Assembly (NCBI RefSeq): GCF_016859125.1
Contig: NZ_CP069338.1
Span: 12,341,501 to 12,405,500 of the forward strand
Direction: 5' to 3'
Source: Archangium violaceum
GTDB taxonomy: Bacteria > Myxococcota > Myxococcia > Myxococcales > Myxococcaceae
Length of the DNA stretch: 64,000 nt
How positions within the stretch are numbered: position 1 is the first letter of the stretch; every line of letters begins with the position of its first letter. The notes below the pieces were generated by a model. It was given only the letters and a program-made list of their open reading frames with translations. It was not told the DNA's origin and did not search any database. Shown here piece after piece: positions 27,251 to 42,498 of the stretch. The translations under genes were made by a program, and so were the position numbers.

Positions 27251-28342
27251 TCAGCTGGCGTACGGTGGCCGCTCCGAGGCGGGCTCCGCCACCAGCGCCT
27301 CCCGGAGCCGCCGCTGAGCCTGCTTGAGCTGCTCGAGGACATGCTCGGCATCCACCACCGTGCGCATCGCCAGGCCGCACGCCGGCGTCAGCAGCACCTG
27401 CGCGCCCACCCGCGTGAAGTCGTAACCCGGTGGCAGGGCCGCCTCGAGCGACACCTCCACCGCGTCCACCAGCTCCCCCACCTCGTACGTGGAGGTCAGA
27501 TCCGTGGGGATGATGCCCAGACTCAACGTGGCCCCCGAGTCCAGGAAGCGCGCGAACGCACTCGACTCCTCCAGCACCGCGTCCAGCGACAGCCGCACAT
27601 CCAGCGACAGCACGTCCAGCCCCGCCTCCAGCAGGCTCGCCCAGTGCGTGTTGCCGCAGCAATGCACGCCCACCAGCGCGCCCTCGCGCTGCAGCGCCAC
27701 CACCAGCAGCCGCAGCTCCTGCATGGCCAGCAGGTGCCTCGGGTTGGAGCGCTCGAAGGCGTACAACCCTGGCTCGTCCAGGAAGAAGAGGGGCGTCGTC
27801 CCCGCCCGGCGCAGCGCCTTCACCATCGCCAGCGAGCGCGCCAGCATCAGCCGGAACATGGCCTCGTCCAACCCCGGCTCGTCCAGGGCCGCCCGCCCCT
27901 CGCTCGTGCGAGCCACCGAGCGCACCGTGAAGGGCCCCGCCAGCTGCGCCTTCGCGAAGGCCAGCTTCCGGTTCTCCACCTCCCAGAGGAACGGCCGCCA
28001 CGCCCGGCACCCCTCCAGCGAGGGCTCGAAGGCCTCCACCGCGCCCGAGGACAGCGCCGCCTCCAGCCGCTCCTCGAAGTCCCCGCGCGCGCTGGCCCAC
28101 GCCTCCAGGTCCACCGTGCACAGGCCCTCGTCGTCCCACCGCAGACCTGGCAGCCCCTCGAGCGCCTGCGGAATCATGAACTCCGAGGGCCGCCCGATGG
28201 GCAACTGGGGCAGGAAGGGAATGTCCAGCGCGAGCGCGGCCTGCAGGCCCATCTCGAGCTGGGTGTGTGGAAGACTCCCGATGCCGGTGGTGGCACAGGT
28301 GGGTAGCAGCTGAACGGCACGGCGGATGTTCGGCGCGCTCAT
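27251..28342 (-). CDS. MetE/UROD-like TIM-barrel protein (cobalamin-independent methionine synthase relative)
   Basis: A 363-residue protein starting TCATTGIGSLPHTQLEMGLQAAL, the opening of the archaeal-type MetE/UROD-like family. GVHCCGNTHWASLLEAG carries candidate zinc ligands (His, Cys), and LLTPACGLAM supplies another Cys near the end. It is half the size of full MetE, so it matches the catalytic half only. It probably transfers a methyl group to a thiol; the donor is unknown. It is 12 bases downstream of the alpha/beta hydrolase gene with a GGGGG site, so both form an operon. The window also has the B12-dependent MetH. Confidence 0.78.
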   Translation of the reverse strand: MSAPNIRRAVQLLPTCATTGIGSLPHTQLEMGLQAALALDIPFLPQLPIGRPSEFMIPQALEGLPGLRWDDEGLCTVDLEAWASARGDFEERLEAALSSGAVEAFEPSLEGCRAWRPFLWEVENRKLAFAKAQLAGPFTVRSVARTSEGRAALDEPGLDEAMFRLMLARSLAMVKALRRAGTTPLFFLDEPGLYAFERSNPRHLLAMQELRLLVVALQREGALVGVHCCGNTHWASLLEAGLDVLSLDVRLSLDAVLEESSAFARFLDSGATLSLGIIPTDLTSTYEVGELVDAVEVSLEAALPPGYDFTRVGAQVLLTPACGLAMRTVVDAEHVLEQLKQAQRRLREALVAEPASERPPYAS

Positions 28343-28354
28343 GGTTCCCCCAAT

Positions 28355-29263
28355 CTAAGCCACCTTCACCCCATCCCCCACCGTCGCCAGGCCCTGGCTG
28401 TCGAGCCACCGTTCCACCGTGGAGAGGAACTCCTCCGGAATCTCCAGCATCGGCGTGTGGCCGACCCCCTGGTATTCCACGTACGTCCAATCCGGCCGCA
28501 CCCGGGCCAGCTCGCGCGAGTTGGCCACCGGCACCAGCCGATCCTCGGTGCCCTGGATGAGCAACGTGGGGACGCGAATCGCCGTCTCCATCTCGCGGAA
28601 CTTCTTCTTGCGCAGCAGCATCATCACCAGCGAGCGCGCCGCCTCGACGAAGGCCTCGTCGGACCAGGGCATCCGCTCGTACCGCTCGCGGGCGAACTCC
28701 ACATGCGCCCGTACCACCTCCTCCGGGAAGCGGCTCAGGTCCCGGCAGCACAGCTGGAGCATGCCCCGCGCCAGCTTCTCGGGCCCATACCGGGCCGAGC
28801 GCCGCTTCACGAAGAACTCGCCCACCCCCGGGATCGCGTAGAGGGCGAACATCATGAACACGGCCCGCTCCATCCGGGTGTTCTCGGCGCTCGGCTGCGC
28901 GGGGTTCACCAGCACCAGCCCGGATACCCGCTGGGGCTGGCGGGCCGCCTCCATCACCGAGAGAGCCCCGCCCATCGAGTTGCCCATCAGCAGGACCGGC
29001 TCGGAGGGGGACACGGCCTGGATGAAGGCGTCCAGCAGCGCCTGGTTGGCGTGGACACTCGCCGAGCGTCCCGCGAGCGGCGTCAGGCCGAAGCCCGTCA
29101 AATCCAACGCCAGCACCCGCGCGCGCCGGGCCAGCTTCTCCCCCACCATCATCCAGTTGTGGTGCGAGCCACCCAGCCCGTGCACCAGCACCATCGTCGG
29201 CCCGGAGCCACCGAAGTCCATGTAGTGAACGGGTCCGCCAAGATCGAGTGTGCGCGTGATCAT
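28355..29263 (-). CDS. Alpha/beta hydrolase
   Basis: A 302-residue cytosolic alpha/beta-hydrolase. The oxyanion region is MVLVHGLGGSHHNW. The nucleophile elbow GNSMGG carries Ser, the acid is in LLIQGTEDRLVP, and the catalytic His is in GVGHTPMLEIPEEF. A lid-like helical insert spans about 140-225. The ATG at 29263 follows GGAGGAGGTG. It resembles esterases and C-C hydrolases of the MhpC group; the substrate is not predictable. It precedes the MetE/UROD-like gene in the same unit. Confidence 0.88.
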   Translation of the reverse strand: MITRTLDLGGPVHYMDFGGSGPTMVLVHGLGGSHHNWMMVGEKLARRARVLALDLTGFGLTPLAGRSASVHANQALLDAFIQAVSPSEPVLLMGNSMGGALSVMEAARQPQRVSGLVLVNPAQPSAENTRMERAVFMMFALYAIPGVGEFFVKRRSARYGPEKLARGMLQLCCRDLSRFPEEVVRAHVEFARERYERMPWSDEAFVEAARSLVMMLLRKKKFREMETAIRVPTLLIQGTEDRLVPVANSRELARVRPDWTYVEYQGVGHTPMLEIPEEFLSTVERWLDSQGLATVGDGVKVA

Positions 29264-29353
29264 CACCTCCTCCCTACCACGTCCCAGGAGGGAATGGGCC
29301 GCCCGGTGGCCGGTGCTGGACGCTGTCGGCGAGTCGGGTAGCCTGCCGTACAC

Positions 29354-30205
29354 ATGCCCGAGCTGCCCCCCCTGCCCCCCTCGCTGGATGCCTGGCGCGA
29401 GCGCATCGAGACCGCCCTCGCGCCCTGCGTCCTCTTCACCACCCGGGACGAGGAGGATCCGGACATGCCCGGGTGCCGCTACGGAGGACACCCGCTCGTC
29501 CCGCCGGGGACGCAGTGGCCCCACTCTCCCCGCGGCCCGCTCTCCTTCGTGGGTCAGCTCGATTTCGCCGAGCTGGCCTCGTGCCGGGGCGAGGCCCTGC
29601 CAGACCTGCCCCGCGACGGTGTCCTCGCCCTCTTCTATGACGTCCAGGAGCAGCCCTGGGGGTTCGATCCGAAGGACGCCGCCTCCTCGAAGCTCCTCTG
29701 GACGCCACGAAGCGCGGACGCGGTGGCGCTCGCCCCGCCTCGTGAGTTGGAGGAGGCGGGCCTGGCCTTCGACCTTCCCCTGAAGCTCACGCCCCGGCTC
29801 GGCCTGTCCCTGCCGGACCCCTGGGATCGCCGCGCGACCCTCCCCGTGGACGAGTGGGGTCAGGACCCGGCGGATGACTACACCGTGCTGCGCGAGCGCC
29901 TCACGGGCGGCGAGCACGCCCACCAGGTCGGAGGCCACCCCTGGTGGATCCAGAGCGACGCGCGCCTGGAGGCCCAGCTCGTCACCCATGGCCTGTACTG
30001 CGGCGACTCACGCGGCTACGACTCGCCCCAGGCCCGGCGGCTGGAGCCCGGCGCCAACGACTGGAGCCTGCTGTGGCAGATCGGCTCCGACGACGCGTCC
30101 GGCTTCATGTGGGGAGATATGGGCAACCTGTACCTCCTCATCCGGGACGCGGACCTGCGTGCCCGCCGGTTCGACCGGGCCTGGCTGGGCCTTCAGTGCG
30201 GGTAG
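29354..30205 (+). CDS. DUF1963 (YwqG-like) protein
   Basis: A 283-residue soluble protein with DUF1963/YwqG features: CRYGGHPLVPPGTQWPHSPRG and LSFVGQLDFAEL near the amino end, LALFYDVQ in the middle, and HQVGGHPWWIQ with WSLLWQIGSDDASGFMWGDMGNLYLLI near the end. The last of these is the signature of the family. Function is unknown; it is widespread and often linked to polymorphic-toxin or housekeeping contexts. It stands alone, with a hairpin about 40 bases after its stop. Confidence 0.85.
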   Translation: MPELPPLPPSLDAWRERIETALAPCVLFTTRDEEDPDMPGCRYGGHPLVPPGTQWPHSPRGPLSFVGQLDFAELASCRGEALPDLPRDGVLALFYDVQEQPWGFDPKDAASSKLLWTPRSADAVALAPPRELEEAGLAFDLPLKLTPRLGLSLPDPWDRRATLPVDEWGQDPADDYTVLRERLTGGEHAHQVGGHPWWIQSDARLEAQLVTHGLYCGDSRGYDSPQARRLEPGANDWSLLWQIGSDDASGFMWGDMGNLYLLIRDADLRARRFDRAWLGLQCG

Positions 30206-30245
30206 GTTCCCAGGCGGGTAGGAGCCCAGAACCCTACGTGCGCCT

Positions 30246-30264
30246 GCCCGCTCCACGAGCGGGC
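30246..30264 (+). terminator. Hairpin terminator after the DUF1963 gene
   Basis: A perfect 8-bp stem GCCCGCTC-cac-GAGCGGGC is followed by CCGGGTATTT. Confidence 0.65.
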
Positions 30265-30491
30265 CCGGGTATTTGGCCCACCGTGCACATGCGGTGTAGG
30301 CTCTCCATCAGTGCAGTCGAGGGAGAATCCTTGATGGCCATCGAATCAACTGCTCCTGACTCCGACGAACGGATGCTCACGTAGGCGGATAGCGGCCAGC
30401 CCGGGCTGGTTCCCGAACGTCTTCAATCTCCCCCCTTCATCCAGCTAGGCTGGAACCGCTCGCTCCCAGAGACACGTCGGTAGACGCCACC

Positions 30492-32312
30492 ATGCAATCG
30501 GACGAAATCAAAAGCCTCACCAAGAAGATCTACAACGCCTACCAGGTGAACAACATGCTGGGGGCGGCTCCGTTGGTCCTCACGTTCGCCATCCTCCTCG
30601 GAATCAAGTCGGGGAAGGAGACGACGACCGCCATCATCCTGGCGGGCATCATCTCCGCGGTGTTCGGCGTCGTTCCCAACCTGGTCACGAGCTCCGAGCT
30701 CAAGAAGGCTTTCGAACCGACCGATCCCGAGACCCGGCTGCGGCTGCTCCTCAAGGTCCCCCGCATCCTCGAGTGGAAGATCCTGGGCGCGCTCCTGGCC
30801 TTCGCGGCCGCCTACATCTCGACGCTCGTCATCATGTTCGACAAGAGCGTCCTGTCGATCCCCTGGGGCCTCACGTTGATGTACCTCATCAACTCGCTCA
30901 TGTGGATCCAGGTGCGGCTCTCCATCGAGAGCTATCTGCGTCCGTACGCGATGAAGGAGTTCCATCGCATCCCGTCGCCGAACATCAAGGACAGGGGCTA
31001 CCTCTGGCCGCGCCAGGAGTGGTTCCTCCCCTACGCGTTCGGCATCTTCATTGCCTGCACCGTGGCGACGATGCTCACCATCATCTTCAAGAGCGCCGAA
31101 GGCATGATGCCGGAGATGGCCGCCAACATGAGCGGCATGTCGTCCGAGCAGCTCGAGGGCTACCTGAAGCAGAGCCTGGGCATGCTGGCCAGGCAGCTGA
31201 TGGTGCCGCTGGTGGTCGTCGGCGTGTACATCCTGCTCAACGCCGCCAGCTCCGCGTGGCGCGTGGCGCGCCACCAGGTGGAGGGCGCCCGGGCCGTCCA
31301 GGAGTCCATCGAGGCCCTGGTGTCCGGTACGCCCAGGCTGCCGGCGTGGGTGAGCACGGATGAGATCGGCGATCTGGCGCAGGCGACGAGCAAGGCCTTC
31401 GCGAAGCTCCGCGCGCTCTCGCTCGCCCTGAAGGAGTCCGCGCAGAGCCTGGGCAGCTCGGCCCAGGAGCTGGGCATGTCCACCACGAAGCAGACCGAGG
31501 TGCTCTCCCGTCAGGCCGCCGCGCTCCAGGAGACCCAGGTCACCGCCCAGGAGATCAAGGAGACCTCCACCCTGGCCTTCCAGAAGGCCGAGAACGTCCT
31601 CAAGGAGACCGAGCGCGCCGACGCCATCAGCCGCTCCGGCGAGGAGGTCCTCGAGCAGAGCCTCAGCGGCCTGGAGAGCATCCGCCAGCAGGTGATGGAG
31701 ATGGCCCGGCGCATCAAGGAGCTGGACGGAAGAACGCGGCAGATCGGCAACATCACCACCACGGTGAAGGACCTGGCCGACCAGTCCAACATGCTCGCGC
31801 TCAACGCCGCCATCGAGGCCGTGCGCTCGGGCGAGCACGGCAAGGGCTTCGCCGTCGTGGCCCGTGAAATCCGCATGCTGGCCGACCAGTCCATCAAGGC
31901 CACGCGCAACGTGCGCGAGCTGCTCCAGGACATCAGCACCGCCATCCGCACCACGGTGGAGATCACCGAGCGCGGTTCGGCGAGGATCGACAGCAGCCTC
32001 GGTCAGGTGCGCGAGTTCGGAAACAACATCCGCCAGCTGTCGGGCATCGTCCGGGAGAACGCCGCCTCGGTCCGGCAGATCTCCGCCGCGGTCGCCCAGC
32101 AGAACGCGGGCATCAGCCAGATCTTCCAGGCCGTCAACGAGCTGTCCACGATGATGGATCAGACCATGACGCGGCTGCGCTCCTCGGAGGAGGCGATGAA
32201 CGTCGTCCAGGGCGTGGTCGAGCGCGTCACCGGTTTCGTGGGCGAGTACGAGTGGGAGAGCGAGGAGCTGGCCAAGCAGGCCACCGTCTCCCGTTCCGAG
32301 CCCACGGCCTAG
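30492..32312 (+). CDS. Methyl-accepting chemotaxis protein without a recognisable ligand domain
   Basis: A 606-residue chemoreceptor. The amino 250 residues hold several membrane helices (around 22-65, 98-135, 180-202 and 232-255) and no long periplasmic sensor, so sensing may occur in or next to the membrane. A HAMP-like linker region is followed by a long coiled coil. The signalling tip, near [19 protein letters not shown] with [18 protein letters not shown], is the canonical CheA/CheW-binding hairpin. No CheR-binding pentapeptide ends the protein. No che gene is adjacent, so it must feed a system elsewhere; the organism's A/S motility and pili are plausible outputs, which is inference. Confidence 0.92.
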
Positions 32313-32361
32313 AGCAGCACACGGCCTGGAGCCGCCCCCCCCGGCTCGGCCAGGTAGCACC

Positions 32362-32387
32362 ACCGGCGCCACACGTGTGGCGCCGGT
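32362..32387. promoter_or_regulatory. 26-bp perfect palindrome between chemoreceptor and P450 genes
   Basis: ACCGGCGCCACAC followed by its exact complement GTGTGGCGCCGGT, with no spacer, 31 bases before the P450 start. It is followed by TCCCCCC. It may be the chemoreceptor's terminator (11-bp stem, 4-base loop) or an operator for the P450; the sequence alone cannot decide. Confidence 0.6.
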
Positions 32388-32418
32388 TCCCCCCGCCCCC
32401 CGCGCAGTCACGATCTCT

Positions 32419-33789
32419 ATGGAAGCTTCCCAGCCCTCCAAGTCCATCCCCCGCGTCTCGGGGGCTCCCCTCATTGGCAACCTGTCCGAGTTCCGCGCCA
32501 GCCGGCTGGATCTGCTGCTGCGCGTGAGCCGGGAGTGCGGCGACATCGGGTCCTTCCGTATCGGCCCCGTCGAGGTCGTGGTGATCAGCTCCGCCACGCT
32601 CGCCAACTCCCTGCTGGTCGGCCATGCGGAGGACTTCAACGGAGGCCCCATTGGCCGCATCTTCATGCCGCTGGTGGGAGACAAGAGCCTCATCTTCCAG
32701 GACGGAGCCCCCCACCGGGAGCAGCGCAAGCTGCTGGCGCCCAGCTTCCACCCGAAGCGGCTGGCCGAGTTCTGCCAGTCCATGACGCGCTACACCCAGG
32801 AGGCCGCCTCGGGTTGGCAGGACGGGCAGATGCTCGACATGGTCCATGAGATGACCATCCTGACCATGCGCATCATCGGGAAGACCATGTTCGACGTGGA
32901 CTTCCAGAACGAGGCGTCCGATCTGCGCGAGGCGATGATGGTGACGCTGGAGCACCTGGATCACATGAGCTCCAGCGCGCCCATCCCCCTGTCCTGGCCG
33001 ACCGCCCGCAACAAGAGGGCCCGTGCGGCGATCGCCACCATCGACAACAGCATCCGGGCGATGATCGACGAGCGGCGCCGTGACGCCACGGACCGCAAGG
33101 ACATGATGAGCTCGCTGCTGCAGGCGCGTAACGACGCCGGCCAGCCCATCGACGAGTCGCAGATCCGCGCCCACATCGTGACCTTCTTCAGCGCCGGGCA
33201 CGAGACGACCGCCCTTGCCCTGAGCTGGACCTGGCAGCTGCTGGCCCGCCACCCCGAGGTGTACGCCAGGGTCCGGCAGGAAGTGGACGCGCTCGGCGGA
33301 AAGACCCCGGGCTTCGAGGATCTGCCCCGGCTGAGCTACCTGCAGCAGGTCATCAAGGAGTCGCTGCGCCTGCACCCCACCATCTTCATGATCGCCCGCG
33401 CCGCCGTGCGCGACGTGGAGATCGAGGGCTACCCCATCCGCAAGGGGCAGATGGTGCTGATTCCGCCCTACTGCATCCACCGCAACCCGGAGTACTTCCC
33501 GGACCCGGAGCGCTTCCAGCCCGAGCGCTTCGAGCCCGAGCGCGAGAAGAGCCGCCCCAAGCAGAGCTACATGCCCTTCGGCTCCGGCCCCCACACCTGC
33601 ATCGGCAGCCACTTCGCGATGATGGAGACGCAGCTCATCATGGCGACGATGCTCCAGCAGTTGGATCTCGAGCTGCCCGCGGGTGAGCAGGTCAAGCCCC
33701 AGGTGCTCACGGTGTCGCTGCGCCCCTCCGCGTACAAGATGCGGGTGAAGCGCCGCGGCAGCGACGCCCCCCAGACGAAGGTGGCGTAG
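32419..33789 (+). CDS. Cytochrome P450
   Basis: A 456-residue soluble P450 monooxygenase. The I-helix oxygen motif is A259GHETT, the K-helix ExxR is ESLR, the PERF-type motif is FQPERF, and the haem-binding loop FGSGPHTCIGSHFA has the axial Cys394. All catalytic signatures are intact. The ATG at 32419 is preferred; the frame runs further upstream into the palindrome. Its 3' end converges, 61 bases apart, with the class II terpene cyclase, so oxidation of a diterpene product is the likely role. No dedicated ferredoxin or reductase gene is adjacent. A strong bidirectional hairpin separates the two units. Confidence 0.92.
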   Translation: MEASQPSKSIPRVSGAPLIGNLSEFRASRLDLLLRVSRECGDIGSFRIGPVEVVVISSATLANSLLVGHAEDFNGGPIGRIFMPLVGDKSLIFQDGAPHREQRKLLAPSFHPKRLAEFCQSMTRYTQEAASGWQDGQMLDMVHEMTILTMRIIGKTMFDVDFQNEASDLREAMMVTLEHLDHMSSSAPIPLSWPTARNKRARAAIATIDNSIRAMIDERRRDATDRKDMMSSLLQARNDAGQPIDESQIRAHIVTFFSAGHETTALALSWTWQLLARHPEVYARVRQEVDALGGKTPGFEDLPRLSYLQQVIKESLRLHPTIFMIARAAVRDVEIEGYPIRKGQMVLIPPYCIHRNPEYFPDPERFQPERFEPEREKSRPKQSYMPFGSGPHTCIGSHFAMMETQLIMATMLQQLDLELPAGEQVKPQVLTVSLRPSAYKMRVKRRGSDAPQTKVA

Positions 33790-33800
33790 AGGCCACGCCC

Positions 33801-33839
33801 GCGGCCCCCGCTCCCGGTCCCCCACCGGGAGCGGGCCGC
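33801..33839. terminator. Bidirectional terminator between P450 and cyclase genes
   Basis: A perfect 12-bp stem CCCGCTCCCGGT (33807-33818) and ACCGGGAGCGGG (33824-33835) with a five-C loop. It sits between the two convergent stops and is extended by imperfect GCGGC/GCCGC. Confidence 0.8.
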
Positions 33840-33850
33840 TCAACCGCGAC

Positions 33851-35398
33851 TCAGGCGCCGCGCTCCTTCGTCTTGCGCTGGTCGAGCATGAGCATGGCGC
33901 TCAGTTCGAAGATGGTGTCGATGCGGTCCACCCGGTACAGCTCCTTGGCGATCCAGCACTTCACCTTGGTGTCGGGCCGGGCGAAGGGGCGGTAGTTGTC
34001 CAGCATCCACGAGGAGGCCCGGTCGAGCGACGCGCCGATGCCCGGGTGGTTGAAGCCCTGCCGCTCCAGGTAGGCGAGCATCAACACGGCATACGCCGTC
34101 TCCGTCAGGTTCGGCGCGCCATGGGTGCTCCACCCCCCATCCCGGTGCTGGGACACGAGCACGGCCTCGACCGCCTCGCGCATCTCCTGCTCGTACGGCG
34201 AGCCGATCAGCGCGATGACGGCGTGGCCCGTCGTGTACAGCCACGAGCGGTTCCACTTGTCCACCGTCCACCGGCCGTCCGGCTCGCGGCGCTCCAGCAG
34301 GAACTTCTGGAAGGGTGCCACGTCCTTGCCCATCACCATCAAGGCGTGGATGCAGCGGGCCGTCACCGTCGGTGACGGGTGCAGTTCGCCCGCGTAGGCG
34401 ACGAAGTGGTTGTCGTTCTGGAAGCGGTAGAGGATGGACAGGTCCACCGGGTAGCCGAACTCGTGCAGCAGCATCACGGCCGCCGCCGTGTCATCGCCGT
34501 CCTGCAGGAAGTAGTCGCTCATGGCGATGCCCTTGGACCCCAGGACACCGGCGATCTCCTTGACCACCGGGGCCACCACGCCCTCGATGCGCGGATCCTT
34601 GAGGAGACCGGCGATCTGCAGGGCGTAGAGCGAGAAGAGCTGCTCGTAGCGCTCGAACGGGTAGATGGTCGACGTGACACCCGGAATGCCCATCTCGCAC
34701 GCGCGCTCGGCATTGGCCAGGTACCTCCGCGCGCGGACGACCGTCTCCTCCAGCTCCGGCTTGCTCGAGGCGGCCTTCACCCACGCCGCCGTCCCCGCCG
34801 GGCTGTGGCTGATGCCACCCGAGCCATCGACGAGCACCGCGTTGGGCTCCGTGCCGGTGATCTCCCAGCAGTGGTTCCAGGGCATGCCCGGGATGACGGG
34901 CAGCTTCGCCACCGACTTGCGCTTGCGCTCACCGAACTCCAGCAGATGACCGTAGGGCTTGCGGGGGATGTGCATCTCGCCCGCCGCGTCGAGCTGATCC
35001 AACAGGCCGGGGAGGACGATCTCTCCGCCCACGGGCAGATCGTCCTTGGCCATCCTGGCCGAGGTGGACCACATCGCCGCCTGCCTGCGGACGAAGGCCA
35101 CGCCCTCCCGGATGGCGACCCGGGTCTCGTTGCGGCGGCCGTACTCGCGCAGCGCGAGGACCGCGGCCAGGGTCGGGATGTCCCGGTGGAGCGGCATGGC
35201 GGGGTCACCCCAACCCCCATCCGACTGCTGCTTCGACAACAGCCAATCCACCGCCGGCCAGACCCCCTCCGCCGGAGGGAGGATCCGCAGCATCTGGGCC
35301 GTGTCGTAGACGGACGGGCTCATCAGCCCACCCTTCGAGCCCAAGACGGAGATCAACGAGTGCAGCTCCGCCACCAAGACATCCTGGATTCGTTTCAT
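33851..35398 (-). CDS. Class II diterpene cyclase-like protein (DxDD)
   Basis: A 515-residue prenyltransferase/squalene-cyclase-fold protein. The protonation motif D300GDD303 (in FLQDGDDTAAA) is the DxDD of class II cyclases. QW-like repeats are seen (SKQQSDGGWGDP, VSQHRDGGWSTHG, ERREPDGRWTVDKW). It lacks the DDxxD ionisation motif, so it should cyclise an intact diphosphate such as GGPP to a copalyl-type bicyclic diphosphate and hand it to the class I enzyme encoded just upstream. Length is typical of bacterial copalyl diphosphate synthases. Gap to the class I gene is 74 bases, holding a run of ten G. The ribosome-binding site is weak. Confidence 0.85.
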   Translation of the reverse strand: MKRIQDVLVAELHSLISVLGSKGGLMSPSVYDTAQMLRILPPAEGVWPAVDWLLSKQQSDGGWGDPAMPLHRDIPTLAAVLALREYGRRNETRVAIREGVAFVRRQAAMWSTSARMAKDDLPVGGEIVLPGLLDQLDAAGEMHIPRKPYGHLLEFGERKRKSVAKLPVIPGMPWNHCWEITGTEPNAVLVDGSGGISHSPAGTAAWVKAASSKPELEETVVRARRYLANAERACEMGIPGVTSTIYPFERYEQLFSLYALQIAGLLKDPRIEGVVAPVVKEIAGVLGSKGIAMSDYFLQDGDDTAAAVMLLHEFGYPVDLSILYRFQNDNHFVAYAGELHPSPTVTARCIHALMVMGKDVAPFQKFLLERREPDGRWTVDKWNRSWLYTTGHAVIALIGSPYEQEMREAVEAVLVSQHRDGGWSTHGAPNLTETAYAVLMLAYLERQGFNHPGIGASLDRASSWMLDNYRPFARPDTKVKCWIAKELYRVDRIDTIFELSAMLMLDQRKTKERGA

Positions 35399-35419
35399 TG
35401 TGAGGCAGACACCTTTTTC

Positions 35420-35429
35420 GGGGGGGGGG
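35420..35429. repeat. Ten-G homopolymer upstream of the class II cyclase start
   Basis: Ten consecutive G on the plus strand, 21 bases before the cyclase start codon, in a gap that also repeats CTTCAGG. It could vary by slippage and affect leader length or translation. Confidence 0.6.
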
Positions 35430-35472
35430 ACTTCAGGGGGGAGGTTTCAGGAGGACTTCAGCGGGGGCGCGC

Positions 35473-36471
35473 CTACCCACCGGACTCGGCATGGTGGAAT
35501 TCGCGCTGCATGTAGAACATCCGGCTGAAGTGGCCCGTCGCGACCAGCGTCTTGCCCCAGGGCCGCAGGGGCTCGGGCAGCTGCCCGACGACCTTCTGGA
35601 GCGACTCGAGGTGCTGCCCGGCGCGCTCCACCGCGGACTTCTCGGCCTCCGCCTCGGACATGCCTCCGGCGATCAGCAGACTCAGCCCGTTGGCCTTGCC
35701 CTCGGCGCGCTCGCGCTCGAGGCTGCGCACGTCATTCATCCAGCGGCCCAGCAGCGCCATCTCCACGAGGGCGCGCTCGACGAGCGGCTCCTGGAGGACA
35801 TCTCCCGCGAAGTCCGGCCCGAGCACCACGAGCGCCGCGGCGTGGTACATGGGCGCGCCGCAGGTCCACCGCGACACGTCCAGGTAGTGCTCCAGCGTGG
35901 GCAGCGTGCCGTCCTGCTGCGCGCGGCGCTTGTCCTTCAACTCCGTCGAGTGGGCCTCGCACATCCGCCGGAAGTGCTCCTGCCAGAGCGCCAGGAAGCG
36001 CTTCGCGCCGGGAAGTGCGTGGAGCGAGCGCGCCACGTCCTGCACCGCACCGCCCACGGACTCGGCCTCGCCAACGCCCGTCCACGACTGGGACTCGGGC
36101 GCGCGCGCCGTCTCCGCGTAGCGCGCGAGCACCTTGTGGATGTCATCGTCCGAGAGCGCGCCGATCTCCCCGTCCGCGATGTCGTCCACGGCGAACACCA
36201 GCAGCCCCACCTTGGAGATGAGCAGGTGCTGCTCCAGCGTCGCTCCGGGCTCCGAGGCGACACACCCCATCGTGGCCGCCTTGAGCCGCGAGGCCGCGAT
36301 GGCCGGGAAGCGCTCCCGCCACGCCATCACCCCCGGCATGAGCTCCTTCACCCGCGCCTGCACGCGCTCGAGGAGCTCCTTCGGAATGCCCGGGGTCTTG
36401 GCCTCCGCGTACTGGTTCTGAAGCTCCCGAACGACTCCGAAATGTTTGCCTTCCAAGTTCTGCGTACTCAT
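35473..36471 (-). CDS. Class I terpene synthase
   Basis: A 332-residue all-alpha terpene synthase. The metal-binding D96DIAD sits in LLVFAVDDIADGEIG, and the NSE triad N246DVRSLERE in LGRWMNDVRSLERE. Both are intact. It should ionise an allylic diphosphate; with the adjacent class II cyclase the natural substrate is probably a copalyl-type diphosphate, giving a labdane-related diterpene (inference). Length fits bacterial diterpene synthases. It is transcribed first in the two-gene unit. A duplicated TGCGCAAC element lies upstream. GGAG precedes the ATG at 36471. Confidence 0.85.
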   Translation of the reverse strand: MSTQNLEGKHFGVVRELQNQYAEAKTPGIPKELLERVQARVKELMPGVMAWRERFPAIAASRLKAATMGCVASEPGATLEQHLLISKVGLLVFAVDDIADGEIGALSDDDIHKVLARYAETARAPESQSWTGVGEAESVGGAVQDVARSLHALPGAKRFLALWQEHFRRMCEAHSTELKDKRRAQQDGTLPTLEHYLDVSRWTCGAPMYHAAALVVLGPDFAGDVLQEPLVERALVEMALLGRWMNDVRSLERERAEGKANGLSLLIAGGMSEAEAEKSAVERAGQHLESLQKVVGQLPEPLRPWGKTLVATGHFSRMFYMQREFHHAESGG

Positions 36472-36495
36472 GGGGGCGGTCTCCAGGAGCGTGGC

Positions 36496-36512
36496 TGCGC
36501 AACGTGCGCAAC
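36496..36512. promoter_or_regulatory. Direct repeat TGCGCAAC-g-TGCGCAAC upstream of the terpene synthase
   Basis: Two identical 8-base words in tandem one base apart, 25-41 bases before the terpene synthase start. This is a candidate activator or repressor site for the diterpene unit. No regulator gene is adjacent. Confidence 0.45.
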
Positions 36513-36656
36513 CAGTGTTCCTGGACTTCTACCATGATTCCGCAATTTTCTGTATCTCCCTGACCCACCTCTGGGTAGCAGGTGACTCACCGGGCGGGCG
36601 CACGCATGCACCTCACCCACATGAGACCACCTTCAGGGAGCCGGCCCGGGAGCCGC

Positions 36657-39600
36657 TCAGGTCACCGCGAAGTAGTGCGCCTGCGGGTGGTGGAAGACGA
36701 GCGCGGACACGCTGGCCTCCGGCTCCATCATGCAGCCGTCGGTGAGCTGCACGCCGATGTCCTCGGGGCGAAGGGCCTGGAACAGCAGCGTCTGATCCTC
36801 CAGCCGGGGGCACGCCGGGTAGCCGAACGAGTAGCGCTTGCCCTGGTACTCGGCGCGGAAGCGCTCGAGCATCGTCATGTCGGGCTTGTCCGGGAAGCCC
36901 CACATGCTGCGCAGCTGGGTGTGCAGCATCTCCGCGTAGGCCTCGGCCGTCTCGAGCGCGAGCGCCTGCACCGCATGCATCTTCAGGAACTCGCCCTTCG
37001 CCTTGAACTCCTCGCTCAGCTCGCGGATGCCCTGCCCCGCCGTCACCACGAACATGGCCATGTTGTCGCGCGGCTCGCCGTTCTCCAGCGGCTTCACGAA
37101 GTCGGCCAGGCACAGTCCGCCCGCCTTCTCCTGACGCGGCAGATCGAACACCACGACGGGCCGGCCCGACTCCCCGTCGAAGAGGTGGATGCGGTTGCCC
37201 TCGCTGCCCACCTTGAAGAACTGGAACACGGCCCTGGCCTGCATGCGCCCGCCGCGCAGCTCGCCCTTGATGGACTCCACCTGCTCCTTGAGCGCGAGCG
37301 CCTTGCGGCCCTCCTCCGTCTTCGCCAGCTCCGCCTCGGCGGGAGTGCCCAGCGCGCGAGACGCCGTGCGCAGGCCCAGGTGCCGCCCGTAGAGCATCAC
37401 CGGGTTCACGAAGCGCCAGATGGTGTCCAGCGGCGTGTTCGCCAGCACGTGGCGCGTGTAGTCCGGCGCCGGAGGCACCTGCTCCAGGATGGACACCTCG
37501 GGGCTGCGCGCCGCCGCCACCGGGGCACCAGGCTTGGGCCGATCCTTGTCCTGCTGCGCCAGCTTCGTGCGGCGCTCGGCCAGCTCGCCCTTGAGCTTCT
37601 CGTGCGCGGCCGGGTCGACGAGCTGCTTGGCCAGCTCCAGGCCGCTCATCGCGTCCTGCGCGTACGCCACCGTGCCGCCGTAGGCCGGAGCGATGTTGCG
37701 GTCCACGAAGTTGCGGCTCAGCGCGGCACCACCCACCAGGATGGGCACGTCCACGCCCTGGCGCTTCAGGTCCTCCGCCGTGGCCACCATCTGGTGCGCG
37801 CTCTTCACCAGCAGGCCGCTCAGTCCGACGATGTCCGGGCCGTGCTCGCGCACCGCCATCACGAGCTGCTCGGGCGGCACCTTGATGCCCAGGTTCACCA
37901 CCTGGAAGCCGTTGTTGGCGAGGATGATCTCCACCAGGTTCTTGCCGATGTCGTGCACGTCGCCCTTCACCGTGGCGAGCACGATCTTCCCGCGCGAGGC
38001 CGCCTGGGCCTTGCTCATCCTCGGCTCCAGGTAGCTCACCGCGGCCTTCATCGCCTCGGCGCTCTGGAGCACCTCCGCGACGATGAGCTCGTTGGCGCCG
38101 AAGAGCCGGCCCACCTCGTCCATGCCCTTCATCAGCGGGCCGTTGATGATCTCCAACGGCGCGTACTTCTCCATCGCCAGCTCCAGGTCCGCGTGCAGGC
38201 CGTCGCGGCTGCCCTCGATGATGTAGCGCTGCAGGCGCTCCTCGAGCGGCAGCGTGCTCACGTCCGCCTTCTTCGGCTTGCGCTCTCGGAAGTGCGCGGC
38301 GAAGGGCGTCACCGGATCCGTACCCCGGTTGTAGAGCAGGTCCTCGGACAGCTGGCGCTCCTCCTGCGGCAGCGACGGGTAGCGCTCGAGCTTCTCCGAG
38401 TTGACGAGCGCCATGTCCAGGCCCGCCTGGACGCAGTGGTAGAGGAACACCGAGTTGAGCACCTCGCGGCCCGCGGTGGGCAGGCCGAAGGACACGTTGG
38501 AGATGCCCAGCACCGTCCTGCACTGGGGGAAGCGCTGCTTGATGAGGCGCACGCCCTCGATGGTCTCCACCGCGCTGCCCGTGTACTGCGCATCACCCGA
38601 GGCGCACGGGAACACGAGCGGATCGAAGTACAGGTCCTCCGCCTTCATCCCGTACTTGCCGGTGAGCAGCTCGAAGGAGCGCTCGGCCACCTCCAGCTTG
38701 CGCTGACGGGTGACGGCCATGCCCTTCTCGTCGATGCAGCCCACCACCAGCGCCGCGCCGTACTGGCGCGCCAGCGGCACCACCTTCTCGAAGCGCTCCT
38801 CGCCATCCTCCAGGTTCACCGAGTTGATGATGGCCTTGCCCTGCGAGTACGTGAGCGCCATCGCGATGACGCGCTCGTCCGTGGAGTCGATCATCAAGGG
38901 CACGCGCACCTTCTTGACGACCACCTCCAGGAAGTTGCGCATGTCCTCGAGCTCGTCCCGGTCCGGGTTGGCCAGGCAGACGTCGATGACCTGCGCCCCG
39001 CGCTTCACCTGGGCCCGGGCGATCTCCGACGCGTCCTCGAGCTGGCCCGCGACGATGAGCTCCTTGAACTTCTTGCTGCCGATGACGTTGGTGCGCTCGC
39101 CGACGATGACCGGGCGCTCCTCGTCGCGCACCTCCAGGAAGTCCACTCCGGAGAGCGTGGAGCGCGGCGGCGGCACGTCGCGGCGGGGCTCGAGGCCCTT
39201 CACCGCGTCGGCGATGGCGCGCACGTGGCCCGTGTGCGTGCCACAACAGCCCCCCACCACGTTGAGCCAGCCCTGCTCACAGAAGCGGCGCAGCGAGCGC
39301 GCCAGCATCTCGGGCGTCTCCAGGTAGTGCCCGTTCTCGTCGGGCAGGCCCGCGTTGGGCACGCACGACACCGCGAAGGGGCTCATGGAGGCCAGGGAGC
39401 GGATGTGGTCCGTCATGAACTCGGGGCCCGTGGCGCAGTTGAGGCCCAGGTACAGCAGCTCCACGTGCTCCAGCGACACCGCCAGCGCCTCCACGGACTG
39501 GCCCGCCAGCATGGTGCCCATGGGCTCGATGGTGCCGGATACCGCCACCGGCAGCTTCCACCCCAGCTTGACGAAGGCCCGCTCGCACCCGAGCAGCGCC

Positions 39601-40169
39601 GCCTTCACGTTGCGCGTGTCCTGGCACGTCTCGAGCAACAGGTAGTCCGAGCCGCCCAGCGCCAGCGCCTCCGCCTGCACGGCGAAGTTGTGCACCAGCT
39701 CCTCGAAGGTGATGCCACCCGTCACGCTGATGGCCTTCGTGGTGGGGCCGATGGAGCCCGCCACCCAGCGCATCCGCCCATCCCGGGCCTCGGCCTCCAG
39801 CGCCGCCTCGAGCGCCAGCTTCGACGCCGCGACGTTGATCTCCACCGCCTTGTGCGACAGGCCGAACTCGCCCAGCACCAGCGGCGTGCCGCCGAAGCTG
39901 TCCGTCTCCGTCACGTCCGCGCCCGAGGCGAGGTACGTCTCGTGGATGCTCTTGATGACGTCCGGCCGCGTGAGGACGAGGTGCTCGTTGCAGCCCTCGT
40001 ACTCGGCCCCGCCGAAGTCCGCCGCCTTGAGGTTCTTCTGCTGCAGCAGCGTGCCCATGGCCCCGTCCAGCACCAGCACGCGCTCGCGCATCGCGGCCCG
40101 CAGGGCCTCCACGCGGCGGCCATGCTCACCCGGAGGAAGAGGAAGAGGGGTGGGAAGGTGGCTGCTCAT
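36657..40169 (-). CDS. metH: Cobalamin-dependent methionine synthase
   Basis: Full-length MetH, 1170 residues, transferring a methyl group from methyltetrahydrofolate to homocysteine. Domain order: homocysteine-binding (about 1-330; zinc Cys in LGLNCATG and GGCCGTHTGH), pterin-binding (about 345-620; VIVGERTNVIGSKKF), and B12-binding. The B12 region has a helical cap, then ATVKGDVHDIGKNL with the cobalt-ligating His near 739. The SAM-dependent reactivation domain is at about 910-1170 (KRYSFGYPACP). It starts at the ATG at 40167-40169, which overlaps the stop of the ArsR-methyltransferase gene (ATGA), so regulator and enzyme are translated together. No cobalamin riboswitch was recognised upstream. 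Confidence 0.97.
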   Translation of the reverse strand: MSSHLPTPLPLPPGEHGRRVEALRAAMRERVLVLDGAMGTLLQQKNLKAADFGGAEYEGCNEHLVLTRPDVIKSIHETYLASGADVTETDSFGGTPLVLGEFGLSHKAVEINVAASKLALEAALEAEARDGRMRWVAGSIGPTTKAISVTGGITFEELVHNFAVQAEALALGGSDYLLLETCQDTRNVKAALLGCERAFVKLGWKLPVAVSGTIEPMGTMLAGQSVEALAVSLEHVELLYLGLNCATGPEFMTDHIRSLASMSPFAVSCVPNAGLPDENGHYLETPEMLARSLRRFCEQGWLNVVGGCCGTHTGHVRAIADAVKGLEPRRDVPPPRSTLSGVDFLEVRDEERPVIVGERTNVIGSKKFKELIVAGQLEDASEIARAQVKRGAQVIDVCLANPDRDELEDMRNFLEVVVKKVRVPLMIDSTDERVIAMALTYSQGKAIINSVNLEDGEERFEKVVPLARQYGAALVVGCIDEKGMAVTRQRKLEVAERSFELLTGKYGMKAEDLYFDPLVFPCASGDAQYTGSAVETIEGVRLIKQRFPQCRTVLGISNVSFGLPTAGREVLNSVFLYHCVQAGLDMALVNSEKLERYPSLPQEERQLSEDLLYNRGTDPVTPFAAHFRERKPKKADVSTLPLEERLQRYIIEGSRDGLHADLELAMEKYAPLEIINGPLMKGMDEVGRLFGANELIVAEVLQSAEAMKAAVSYLEPRMSKAQAASRGKIVLATVKGDVHDIGKNLVEIILANNGFQVVNLGIKVPPEQLVMAVREHGPDIVGLSGLLVKSAHQMVATAEDLKRQGVDVPILVGGAALSRNFVDRNIAPAYGGTVAYAQDAMSGLELAKQLVDPAAHEKLKGELAERRTKLAQQDKDRPKPGAPVAAARSPEVSILEQVPPAPDYTRHVLANTPLDTIWRFVNPVMLYGRHLGLRTASRALGTPAEAELAKTEEGRKALALKEQVESIKGELRGGRMQARAVFQFFKVGSEGNRIHLFDGESGRPVVVFDLPRQEKAGGLCLADFVKPLENGEPRDNMAMFVVTAGQGIRELSEEFKAKGEFLKMHAVQALALETAEAYAEMLHTQLRSMWGFPDKPDMTMLERFRAEYQGKRYSFGYPACPRLEDQTLLFQALRPEDIGVQLTDGCMMEPEASVSALVFHHPQAHYFAVT

Positions 40170-41059
40170 TTCTTGACTCCAGTGATGAGGAAGACGCGGA
40201 AGGGACTCGCCCCCTCGCGTGCATGCGTTTCGCGCGTGAGGGCGCCAAAGCCCACCTCGCGCAGGGAGGTCTCGAGCGTCTCCGGCGCGAAACCGAGGTG
40301 CCGGTGGCCCAACCGCTCCAGCACCCACCGCTCGTCGTGCGGCATCAACTCCAACAACACCAGCTTGCCCCCGGGCTTGAGGATGCGGGCGGCCTCGGCC
40401 AACACCGCCGGGGGGGACTCCACGTGATGGAGGCTCTGGGAGATGACCACCAGGTCGCGCTCGCCCGAGGGCAGCGACAACCGGTGCAGATCCTCTCGAA
40501 GGAAGGTGATGTTCGAGCGGCCCTCGCGAGCGGCGCGCTCCCGGGCCTGCGCCAGCGCGGCGGCGCTCTGGTCGATGGCCCACACCCGCGACGCCCATCG
40601 CGCGATGGCCACCGACAGCACGCCCGTGCCACACCCGAAGTCCGCCACGTCCAGCGCCGGCAGCAGCGAGGCCAGGGCTCCCGCCCACAGGAACCAGGAC
40701 TGCCCCGGCTCCAGCAACCGCTCGTTGAGGGCCTGCCGATCCTCGCGCTGCCGCAGCAGGTCCTCGAGCCTCGCCGAGTCTCCCTCCTCGTCCGCGGCCT
40801 CGCGTGCCAGACGGATGAGGGGCCACCGGGAGTCCGTCGGCTCCAGCGCCAACGAGTAGTAGGTGAAGCCCGCCTGCCGCTCCTCGCGGATGAGCCCCAG
40901 CCCCTTGAGCTTCCCCAGGTGGTGCGACACCGAGGACTGCGCCACCCCCACCAGGGACACCAGCTCCGACACGTTCAGCGGCGCCCGCGCCACCAGGCGA
41001 AGGATGCGCAGCCGCGTCGGGTCACCCAGGGCCCGGAAGGATTGGGAGAGTTCCTCCAT
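40166..41059 (-). CDS. ArsR-family regulator fused to a SAM-dependent methyltransferase domain (SahR-like)
   Basis: A 297-residue two-domain protein. Residues about 1-95 form an ArsR winged helix (FRALGDPTRLRILRLV, VGVAQSSVSHHLGKLKGLGL). Residues about 130-297 form a Rossmann methyltransferase with motif I ADFGCGTGVLSVA and ISQSLHHVESP. This architecture is known from SahR-type regulators of the methyl cycle, which sense S-adenosylhomocysteine. Coupling by ATGA to metH fits that role closely, though the ligand is inferred. ArsR metal-binding Cys pairs are absent. The ATG at 41059 lies inside an inverted repeat that may be its own operator. Confidence 0.88.
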   Translation of the reverse strand: MEELSQSFRALGDPTRLRILRLVARAPLNVSELVSLVGVAQSSVSHHLGKLKGLGLIREERQAGFTYYSLALEPTDSRWPLIRLAREAADEEGDSARLEDLLRQREDRQALNERLLEPGQSWFLWAGALASLLPALDVADFGCGTGVLSVAIARWASRVWAIDQSAAALAQARERAAREGRSNITFLREDLHRLSLPSGERDLVVISQSLHHVESPPAVLAEAARILKPGGKLVLLELMPHDERWVLERLGHRHLGFAPETLETSLREVGFGALTRETHAREGASPFRVFLITGVKK

Positions 41060-41084
41060 ATCGTCGAATCTACATATGTCGATA
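41059..41084. promoter_or_regulatory. Candidate autoregulatory operator of the ArsR-methyltransferase/metH operon
   Basis: TATCG (41059-41063) and CGATA (41080-41084) form an inverted repeat around ACATATGT (41072-41079), itself a perfect 8-bp palindrome. The block is AT-rich against its surroundings and covers the start codon and leader, as expected for ArsR autorepression. Confidence 0.55.
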
Positions 41085-41165
41085 CGCCGTGAAAGACCAG
41101 AGGGAGCACGCCCAGAATCGACGCGGCGCGTTGCCATGTGTGGAAGGGTCATCTAGAGACGGGAC

Positions 41166-42041
41166 ATGCCCGCTCCCTCCCTGCGCCAACTTCTCGAAGG
41201 CAAACGTTTCGGACTCGTCCTCTCCGCCGGGTACTTCGGCTTCTACGGACACGCCGGCTTCCTCAAGGGGCTGGCGGCCACGGGCCTGAAGCCCACCGCG
41301 TATGCCGGGACGAGCGCCGGGGGCCTGGTCGCCGCGTACGCCGCCGCGGGAGCGAGCGTGCCCTTCATCGAGGAGCTGGTCCTCAAGCAGACGCGGCAGG
41401 CCTTCTGGGATCCGGACCCCATCGGGGCGGTGATGAACGGGTTCCCCGGTGATGGCCATGGGGCCACGGGCCTGCTCAAGGGCGAGCGCTTCCGCAAGCT
41501 GCTGGAGCGGACGCTGCCGGTGCAGAGCTTCGAGGAGCTGCCGTACCCGCTGCTGCTCGCGAGCGCCAACCTCTCGCAGGGGACGCACGAGATCTTCACC
41601 TCGGGCGAGCTGGCGCCCCGGGTGCACGCCACGTGCGCCTACCCGGGCCTGTTCCGAGCGGTGCGCCTGGGCCGCGACCTGTACTGGGACGGCGGACTGG
41701 TGGACAAGGCGCCCGCGCTTTTCATGAGGGAGAGCGCCTTCGGCAAGGACCTCGACGCCATCCTCGTGCACTACCTGCCGAGCCGTACGCGCAAGATGCT
41801 CGGCGGCCCCATGGCGTATGCCCAGGGCATCGCCGCGGGCTCGGCGGCGCTGCGGCACGATCACTTCCGGCTGCAGCTCTCACTGCTCAGGGAGCGCGGC
41901 TTCCCCGTCTACGTGGTGGTGTCCAACCTGCCGCCGGTGTCCCCGACGCAGATGGAGCGCGGCTTCGATGCGCTGCACCAGGCGAAGCTCAGCGCCGAGC
42001 GCGCCATGGCCCGGCCTCCCGTCCCCTTCGAGGAGGCCTGA
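41166..42041 (+). CDS. Patatin-like phospholipase
   Basis: A 291-residue patatin-fold acyl hydrolase. The catalytic Ser is in GTSAGGLVAAY and the Asp of the dyad in WDGGLVDKAP. The usual Gly-rich oxyanion motif GGGxRG is replaced by SAGYFGFYGHAG, so substrate range or activity may differ. There is no signal peptide. It is divergent from the methyl-cycle operon and convergent with the CoA-binding gene. Confidence 0.87.
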   Translation: MPAPSLRQLLEGKRFGLVLSAGYFGFYGHAGFLKGLAATGLKPTAYAGTSAGGLVAAYAAAGASVPFIEELVLKQTRQAFWDPDPIGAVMNGFPGDGHGATGLLKGERFRKLLERTLPVQSFEELPYPLLLASANLSQGTHEIFTSGELAPRVHATCAYPGLFRAVRLGRDLYWDGGLVDKAPALFMRESAFGKDLDAILVHYLPSRTRKMLGGPMAYAQGIAAGSAALRHDHFRLQLSLLRERGFPVYVVVSNLPPVSPTQMERGFDALHQAKLSAERAMARPPVPFEEA

Positions 42042-42057: not shown

Positions 42058-42498
42058 TCAGCGTCCGTAGCGCCGGTGGTCCACCATCAGGCAGCGGTCC
42101 TGCACCACCTTGATGCCCGCCTCGGCCAGCCGCCGGGCCGCCGCGTCGTTGCGGATGCCCGACTGGAACCACACCGCCTTCGGCTTCTTGGCGAGGATGT
42201 CGTCCACGTGCTGGTCGATGTCCCGTGGCCGCCGGAACACGTCCACCAGATCGATCTCCCCCGGGATGTCCACCAGCCGCCGGAACACCGGCCTGCCGAG
42301 GATGTGCGTCACGTCCGGGTAGTAGACGGGCACCGGTACCACGTCCACGCCCGCGTCGGCCAGGTACCGCGGCACGTAGAAGGCCGGCTGGCCGTCCTGC
42401 TGCTCCGTCTTGATGCCCAGCACCGCCACGCGCCTGCTGCCCTGCACCACCGCGCGGATGCCCGCCTCGTCGCTGATGAGGTTCTGCTCGTAGCTCAT
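42058..42498 (-). CDS. CoA-binding domain protein (YccU-like)
   Basis: A 146-residue Rossmann protein with RVAVLGIKTEQQDGQPAFYVPRYLADAGVDVVPV, VDVFRRPRDIDQHVDDILAKKPKAVWFQSGI, and VVQDRCLMVDHRR. This is the small stand-alone CoA-binding family typified by YccU. The ligand is presumed and the function unknown. Its ATG overlaps the stop of the upstream lipoprotein gene (ATGA at 42495-42498), and GAGGAGGAG lies upstream. Confidence 0.88.
   Translation of the reverse strand: MSYEQNLISDEAGIRAVVQGSRRVAVLGIKTEQQDGQPAFYVPRYLADAGVDVVPVPVYYPDVTHILGRPVFRRLVDIPGEIDLVDVFRRPRDIDQHVDDILAKKPKAVWFQSGIRNDAAARRLAEAGIKVVQDRCLMVDHRRYGR

What the first reader, a model, noticed from the sequence alone, without database searches (positions are those of the whole stretch)
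32419..36471. Compact candidate diterpenoid locus: class I synthase, class II cyclase and P450
Intact DDxxD and NSE motifs in one gene and an intact DxDD in the next, in one transcription unit, with a convergent P450. This is the minimal set for a labdane-type oxygenated diterpene, and few such loci are characterised in myxobacteria. No GGPP synthase is included, so the precursor must come from carotenoid or quinone pathways. The product is not predictable from sequence.
Basis: partly seen in the sequence, partly recalled or inferred. Interest (0 to 1): 0.7.

Follow-up and report, generated by a model that had tools for sequence, protein, structure and literature searches.

The report
Terpene gene cluster with linked chemoreceptor
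This is a version of an already published myxobacterial terpene gene cluster that has gained a membrane chemoreceptor of a little-known kind, and because such receptors repeatedly sit beside genes for small oily molecules in related bacteria, the cells may be sensing compounds they make themselves.

Summary
In detail: TS1 (35473-36471, -) has DDxxD and NSE motifs, TS2 (33851-35398, -) has DGDD, and the P450 is convergent. But gene order, sizes and annotations match the published sora cluster (PMC7321100), proposed to make the C15 nucleoside (2-hydroxy)sorangiadenosine in Vitiosangium; that paper names A. violaceum Cb vi76, whose locus is orthologous to the window. So the enzyme part is known, and "diterpenoid, labdane-type" is unproven: TS2 resembles diterpene cyclases by sequence, but its labdane-associated position is Ala, and the proposed product is C15.

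The unusual part lies just outside: a chemoreceptor gene (30492-32312, +) with a six-helix membrane domain unknown to Pfam. In four Archangium genomes 13 of 25 matches to this domain (window included) lie within 6 kb of a terpene-cyclase-family or UbiA gene, against 0 of 100 other MCPs. Others adjoin polyketide synthases, UndA-like genes or chemotaxis operons; the sora cluster itself lists a "sensory transducer".

Best reading: a terpenoid pathway whose lipophilic product the receptor senses. The enzymes are likely; sensing is inferred. Against: the three orthologous Archangium loci examined carry no such receptor.

The parts
27251..28342 (-). 363-aa protein, counterpart by place and size of sora4 (annotated MetE, 364 aa); only a sub-threshold URO-D match in Pfam
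28355..29347 (-). Alpha/beta hydrolase (start not fixed), counterpart of sora5
29354..30205 (+). DUF1963 protein, 283 aa, counterpart of sora6 (284 aa)
30492..32312 (+). Chemoreceptor-like protein, 606 aa: six-helix N-terminal membrane domain without Pfam match, HAMP-like stretch (about 263-330), MCP signalling domain
   Evidence: PF00015 4.6e-35; six-helix model, pLDDT 87.2, pTM 0.82
32362..32387 (.). 26-bp perfect palindrome between receptor and P450; its 24-bp core has no other copy in the genome at up to 3 mismatches
32419..33789 (+). Cytochrome P450, 456 aa from ATG (a GTG at 32377 lies inside the palindrome); counterpart of sora7 (457 aa)
33807..33835 (.). Stem-loop between the convergent P450 and TS2 ends; not called by the terminator scan
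33851..35398 (-). TS2: class II terpene cyclase, 515 aa; DGDD at 34490-34501; counterpart of sora8 (518 aa, called eudesmadiene transferase there)
35473..36471 (-). TS1: class I terpene synthase, 332 aa; DDIAD at 36172-36186, NSE at 35710-35736; counterpart of sora9 (333 aa)
36657..40826 (-). B12-dependent methionine synthase (longest ORF), counterpart of sora13
40166..41152 (-). ArsR-type HTH plus methyltransferase, counterpart of sora14
41166..42041 (+). Patatin-like protein, 291 aa, counterpart of sora15 (292 aa)

Best explanation
The locus is a sora-type terpenoid cluster with an added receptor. TS2 cyclises a linear prenyl diphosphate by protonation and keeps the diphosphate; TS1 ionises that diphosphate and finishes the skeleton or hands the cation to an acceptor (adenosine, if the published product is right); the P450 hydroxylates. 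This order is my inference from the motifs and from the tuberculosinyladenosine precedent (recalled), and reverses the published roles, in which the TS1 counterpart cyclises FPP and the TS2 counterpart attaches adenosine. The lipophilic product then partitions into the membrane and is bound by the six-helix domain of the neighbouring receptor, which changes CheA/CheW signalling and so movement or development. Shown: genes, motifs, conservation, match to sora, genome-wide linkage of this receptor type to lipophile-making genes and, in three loci, to CheA genes. Inferred only: product, reaction order, binding, output.
For: Cluster identity: order, sizes and annotations agree with sora4-sora9 and sora13-sora15; the paper names A. 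violaceum Cb vi76 as having a similar cluster, and L034, titled Cb vi76, is syntenic with the window. Enzymes: intact motifs; TS1-like genes adjoin class II genes also in G055 (L048) and Nonomuraea (L158). Receptor: 13 of 25 against 0 of 100 other MCPs within 6 kb of a PF19086, PF13243 or UbiA match, Fisher 3.4e-11; random placement mean 0.31, maximum 4 in 20,000 draws. TS2B class II clade: receptor within about 0.7 kb in 8 of 8 places, tandem or convergent. UndA-like gene beside 15 of 19 receptors examined outside Archangium and g11, a P450 beside the other 4. Family members lie in operons with CheA, CheR and CheB (L141, L144) or with CheA (L142). The sora cluster lists a 609-aa 'sensory transducer' next to a second type II gene. 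Membrane domains diverge more (median 30%) than signalling domains (60%).
Against: Orthologous loci in G001, G002 and G004 have no such receptor, nor do the four g11 TS2 loci. Of the 25, 6 adjoin no recognised lipophile-making gene: 4 in one syntenic context of 2-oxoacid dehydrogenase, peptidase and Omp85 genes, 2 domains of one tandem protein. The second copy seen in several other genera (L135/L138 type) has no evident synthase. Orthologous loci are not independent and the window is one of the 13. P450 proximity alone is weak: 5 of 25 against 6 of 100, p 0.04, truncated list. No confident fold match for the membrane domain. A eudesmane skeleton, as published, is not what a class II cyclase makes from FPP in known cases (recalled), so either the reaction order given here or the published product assignment may be wrong.
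Confidence: 0.4

Rival explanations
1. The receptor is an unrelated insertion; the locus is simply a sora-type cluster.
For: Receptor absent at three orthologous loci while the flanks stay syntenic.
Against: Linkage of this receptor type to terpene-cyclase-family and UbiA genes against 0 of 100 other MCPs, in several non-homologous contexts; a sensory transducer also in the Vitiosangium cluster.
Confidence: 0.4
2. Published route: TS1 makes a eudesmane from FPP, TS2 attaches adenosine, the P450 hydroxylates; MetE/MetH/methyltransferase genes supply adenosine.
For: PMC7321100: isotope feeding and genome-metabolome correlation.
Against: No knock-out; the authors ask for genetic confirmation. TS2 has an intact DxDD, and that paper's Table 3 counts two Type II cyclases in the cluster, which does not suggest a transferase. 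TS1 relatives lie beside class II genes elsewhere.
Confidence: 0.25
3. Diterpenoid pathway: TS2 on GGPP, then TS1, then the P450.
For: TS2 is nearest, in the plasmid records searched, to rhizobial gibberellin-operon class II enzymes and matches diterpene cyclases in the PDB.
Against: Published product of the homologous cluster is C15; no local GGPP synthase; selectivity residue not diagnostic.
Confidence: 0.35
4. The receptor senses membrane state or carries the terpenoid as a bound cofactor and responds to light, redox or stress.
For: All-helical membrane domain without an outer sensor domain; neighbouring products share little but lipophilicity.
Against: Receptor clades largely follow enzyme type.
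Confidence: 0.12

Closest known systems
(2-hydroxy)sorangiadenosine candidate cluster sora1-22, Vitiosangium cumulatum (PMC7321100)
   Same: Counterparts of sora4-9 and sora13-15 in order, size and annotation
   Different: Window lacks sora10-12 (hypothetical, sensory transducer, second type II gene) between TS1 and MetH, and has a receptor between the P450 and the DUF1963 gene instead; sequences of that cluster were not compared
Rhizobial gibberellin operon class II/class I pair (S. fredii NGR234, L154)
   Same: TS2 about 35% identical over nearly its full length
   Different: TS1 has no rhizobial match at E 0.01 in plasmids, only 0.29 to chain blr2150 in the PDB; class I precedes class II here; no GGPP synthase, ferredoxin or SDR; one P450 instead of three
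Class II cyclases 7xkx, 6vpt, 5bp8 (Tpn2, Rv3377c, PtmT2 by recall)
   Same: Top PDB matches 1.3e-33, 1.6e-30, 7.8e-24
   Different: Low identity; 6vpt shares Ala at the selectivity site, 7xkx has Gly
PDB 9kgb 'terpene synthase'
   Same: Best PDB relative of TS1, 1.3e-25
   Different: Its product was not found in the library
CqsA/CqsS-type signal synthase/receptor pairs (recalled)
   Same: Lipophile-making enzyme beside a multi-helix membrane receptor
   Different: MCP output instead of a histidine kinase; ligand untested

Membership tests
sora-type (sorangiadenosine) cluster | Gene order and sizes of the terpene core and flanks | tested here: met
   sora4-9 and sora13-15 counterparts present; sora10-12 absent
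sora-type (sorangiadenosine) cluster | Sequence identity to the Vitiosangium proteins | not tested
   their sequences were not held; the bridge is A. violaceum Cb vi76, named in the paper and syntenic here
sora-type (sorangiadenosine) cluster | Makes sorangiadenosine | not testable with these tools
   needs metabolite analysis and deletions
Bacterial class II cyclase | DxDD motif | tested here: met
   DGDD, residues 300-303
Bacterial class II cyclase | Conserved His and Tyr (Tpn2 H180, Y489) | tested here: met
   both aligned
Bacterial class II cyclase | Closer to diterpene cyclases than to SHC | tested here: met
   231 bits to rhizobial CPS, 36.6 to an SHC-like protein; PDB ranking; no SHC in the tree
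Labdane/CPP synthase | Asp at the Tpn2-485 position | tested here: inconclusive
   Ala; the marker is not universal, rhizobial enzymes have Gly
Class I terpene synthase | DDxxD and NSE in a PF19086 domain | tested here: met
Gibberellin operon | KS-type partner and the further operon genes | tested here: not met
Squalene-hopene cyclase | SHC models above cut-off | tested here: not met
   TIGR01507 39.7 against 431.1 bits, TIGR01787 49.3 against 322.7
MCP chemoreceptor | MCP signalling domain | tested here: met
   PF00015 4.6e-35
MCP chemoreceptor | Works with CheA/CheW | tested here: inconclusive
   relatives encoded with CheA in L141, L142, L144; no direct test for the window protein
CqsA/CqsS-type pair | Receptor is a histidine kinase | tested here: not met
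   MCP domain instead

The most novel reading that the evidence does not exclude
Archangium and relatives carry a set of private chemical channels: each chemoreceptor with this six-helix membrane domain is encoded beside enzymes that make its own lipophilic ligand (terpenoid, prenylated or polyketide product, UndA-type alkene), and receptors are recruited again and again into existing pathways. The window, and the Vitiosangium sora cluster with its sensory transducer at another place in the same locus, would be two separate recruitments into one terpenoid pathway.
Probability: 0.38. Interest if true: 0.85.

Novelty: new variant of a known kind. Interest (0 to 1): 0.55.

Why it matters
The enzyme part is a known kind of locus. 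The receptor linkage, if it reflects sensing, would turn two open matters (what bacterial terpenes are for, and what myxobacterial chemoreceptors detect; both stated from recall) into testable enzyme/receptor pairs, because each neighbouring enzyme names the ligand class of its receptor. It would also explain the uncommented sensory transducer in the published sorangiadenosine cluster. For the pathway itself, the intact DxDD of TS2 questions the published 'eudesmadiene transferase' role.

Tried and rejected
SHC for TS2: rejected. A copied gibberellin operon: rejected. Known fold for the membrane domain: Foldseek nothing at E 0.001 or better, VIA-align best Z 7.6, within the stated noise for helical bundles; absence proves nothing. 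PDB profile search: one chance hit, E 0.19. Membrane domain in plasmid records: no match. Rfam in 28000-42000: none. Sigma-70 promoters and terminators: 1 found of each, means in shuffles 0.5 and 2.0. Palindrome as regulon site: one place in the genome. L087:8124-9437 as a new cyclase: no Pfam, NCBIfam or convincing PDB match, no homologue in the other 58 genomes searched, model useless, pLDDT 38.

Literature: searches. This removed my earlier view that the locus was uncharacterised and lowered a C20 product from about 0.75 to about 0.4. The word 'sensory' occurs there once (Table 4), 'chemotaxis' and 'receptor' not at all. PMC5429845 (passages) links no chemoreceptor gene with a terpene locus in what I saw. 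Also seen: passages of PMC6997564 and PMC11469919; outline, abstract and section 10 of PMC9814783. In these searches and passages I saw no report of a general linkage of chemoreceptors with terpene genes; most subscription papers are outside the library.

Limits: distances run between first coordinates of matches; PF13243 hits there include sub-cut-off ones and long frames that may not be cyclases. The 25 come from a single-sequence search; the profile search counts 8, not 7, matches in G003, so one of the 100 may belong to the family. Two of the 25 are domains of one tandem protein. In one search the 19 labels were set by me by hand, 8 are single rows, and 3 of the 11 multi-row groups (TS2B, unknown, UndA-type) are not single clades. 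L026_TSI in the TS1 tree shows no synthase motifs, was probably translated on the wrong strand, and should be ignored. The gene caller missed the receptor in L140 and the class II gene in L041. Other MCPs near polyketide synthases were not tested. Receptors outside Myxococcota were searched only in plasmids.

Full report
What is there. A receptor gene (30492-32312, +), a P450 (32419-33789, +), TS2 (33851-35398, -) and TS1 (35473-36471, -). Intergenic features are a 26-bp palindrome before the P450 and a stem-loop between P450 and TS2.

It is a published kind of locus. PMC7321100 (2020; sections 7, 8 and 22 read) proposes sora1-22 of Vitiosangium cumulatum for sorangiadenosine and 2-hydroxysorangiadenosine, sesquiterpene-adenosine hybrids. 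Its Table 4 runs MetE (364 aa), hydrolase, hypothetical (284), P450 (457), 'eudesmadiene transferase' (518), terpene cyclase (333), hypothetical (387), sensory transducer (609), second transferase (509), MetH, methyltransferase, patatin (292). The window has a 363-aa protein in the MetE place, hydrolase, DUF1963 (283), P450 (456), TS2 (515), TS1 (332), MetH, methyltransferase and patatin (291) in that order, without the three genes sora10-12, and with a receptor between the DUF1963 and P450 genes. The paper says that A. violaceum Cb vi76 and Archangium sp. Cb g35 have similar clusters lacking sora12; the Cb vi76 locus held here (L034) is syntenic with the window. The published evidence is feeding and genome-metabolome correlation, and the authors ask for genetic confirmation. 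I could not compare sequences with the Vitiosangium proteins.

Enzyme reading. TS2 matches class II diterpene cyclases in the PDB (best 1.3e-33) far above SHC (about 1e-6). In plasmids, 136 of 72,556 records hold a relative; the listed best are rhizobial, about 35%, in gibberellin-type operons such as L154. The genome-contig scan confirmed three loci, two Archangium and one distant. In a tree of 26 rows the main myxobacterial clade joins the rhizobial enzymes (98/98). TS1 has no rhizobial match in plasmids at E 0.01; its relatives include PDB 9kgb (1.3e-25), a paralogue in the same genome (47%), and class I genes beside class II genes in G055 and Nonomuraea. I therefore favour TS2 first and TS1 second, against the published roles; the published eudesmane skeleton speaks against my order. 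The selectivity residue is Ala in the window and three orthologues, Ser in four g11 orthologues, Gly in the TS2B rows aligned, the rhizobial enzymes and 7xkx, Ala in 6vpt, and Asp in two Streptomyces plasmid enzymes and in myxobacterial rows L053 and L055. It does not decide the skeleton.

Conservation. Among 98 genomes, the pair occurs in 4 of 6 Archangium genomes. The P450 is at the same place in G002 and G004 (57-58%) and not found in G001. Four g11 genomes (Cystobacter-like, by recall) have TS2 at 54-56% without a TS1 match.

The receptor family. The six-helix domain has no Pfam match, a good model (pLDDT 87.2) and no confident fold relative. It occurs in 69 of 195 Myxococcota genomes, 5-9 matches each in Archangium and g11. 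I noticed it because loci fetched for cyclases kept containing it; the test below starts from the receptors.

Control. In G000-G003, 125 MCP signalling domains (split matches merged by hand): 25 with this membrane domain, 100 others. Within 6 kb of a PF19086 or PF13243 match: 9 of 25 against 0 of 100; adding UbiA: 13 of 25 against 0 of 100, Fisher 3.4e-11. The window is one of the 13 and prompted the question; without it the count is 12 of 24. Random placement: mean 0.31, maximum 4 in 20,000 draws. The other 12: four beside a polyketide synthase, one beside a type III polyketide synthase, one between P450s, four in one syntenic context of 2-oxoacid dehydrogenase, peptidase and Omp85 genes, two domains of one tandem protein. 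Orthologous loci are not independent, but the enzyme contexts differ: TS1-TS2, TS2B, a TS1 paralogue, three further class I contexts, TS2 with a class I gene, HAD plus a distant class II protein, UbiA plus P450, UbiA plus type III polyketide synthase.

Further links. All 8 TS2B places have a receptor within about 0.7 kb, tandem or convergent; the six TS2B loci present in both trees split into the same two groups, with weak support for one group in the cyclase tree (83/69). In a tree of 52 receptor domains, 19 hand-set neighbour labels need 18 changes, the minimum, partly because orthologous loci share synteny. Of 19 receptor loci examined from other genera of the family (the ones returned), 15 have a homologue of UndA within about 1.5 kb and 4 a P450; the second copy found in several of those genomes (L071, L082, L083) has no UndA-like gene. 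In L141 and L144 the receptor lies with CheA, CheR and CheB genes, in L142 with CheA; in G055 that operon begins about 3.3 kb from the TS1-like/class II pair. The sora table's sensory transducer lies beside a second type II gene, which recalls the TS2B/receptor pairs; its sequence was not seen.

Against. The window receptor is absent from the orthologous loci of G001, G002 and G004 and no receptor lies in the g11 TS2 stretches. L135/L138-type receptors have no evident synthase. P450 proximity alone is weak.

Verdict. Orthology to the sora cluster about 0.9; TS2 and TS1 acting in series about 0.7; C15 about 0.5, C20 about 0.4; product sensing by the receptor about 0.4.

Noticed in passing
window 30492-32312; L041-L047, L049, L050, L052, L054, L086-L104, L134-L153: Chemoreceptors with a six-helix membrane domain often encoded beside terpene, UbiA, polyketide or UndA-like genes; used in the main argument.
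   Followed up: yes
L048 and L144 (G055:C58, about 63-76 kb): A TS1-like/class II pair about 3.3 kb from an operon with CheB, CheA, CheR and a receptor of this family.
   Followed up: partly
L087:8124-9437 (-): 437-aa protein without family match, between a receptor of this type and a P450, where a cyclase sits in other loci; no homologue in the other 58 genomes searched.
   Followed up: partly
L089:4033-6795 and L092:7916-10674: HAD hydrolase next to a distant class II-type protein with a DVDD motif beside the receptor; resembles a split drimenol-type pathway (recalled analogy).
   Followed up: partly
L042-L045, L049, L050, L052: TS2B-type class II proteins have DGDI or DGDT instead of DxDD; 6vpt also lacks the last Asp.
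   Followed up: partly
window 42058-42498 (-): 146-aa protein with a CoA-binding domain (PF13380) at the place and size of sora18 (147 aa), which the sora paper annotates as O-acetylhomoserine sulfhydrylase; if it is the same gene, that annotation looks doubtful.
   Followed up: partly
L091, L093, L094, L096-L100: A receptor of this type beside a large KS-KR-DH polyketide synthase (1,793 aa in L091); most of these loci also have a phosphopantetheinyl transferase, an FAD enzyme and an OPT transporter by family clustering.
   Followed up: no
L042:12154-13446 and homologues in L041, L043, L044: 430-aa protein without Pfam or NCBIfam match near the TS2B/receptor pair in four Archangium loci.
   Followed up: no
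window, about 35420-35430: Run of about 10 G between TS1 and TS2; length variation not tested.
   Followed up: no
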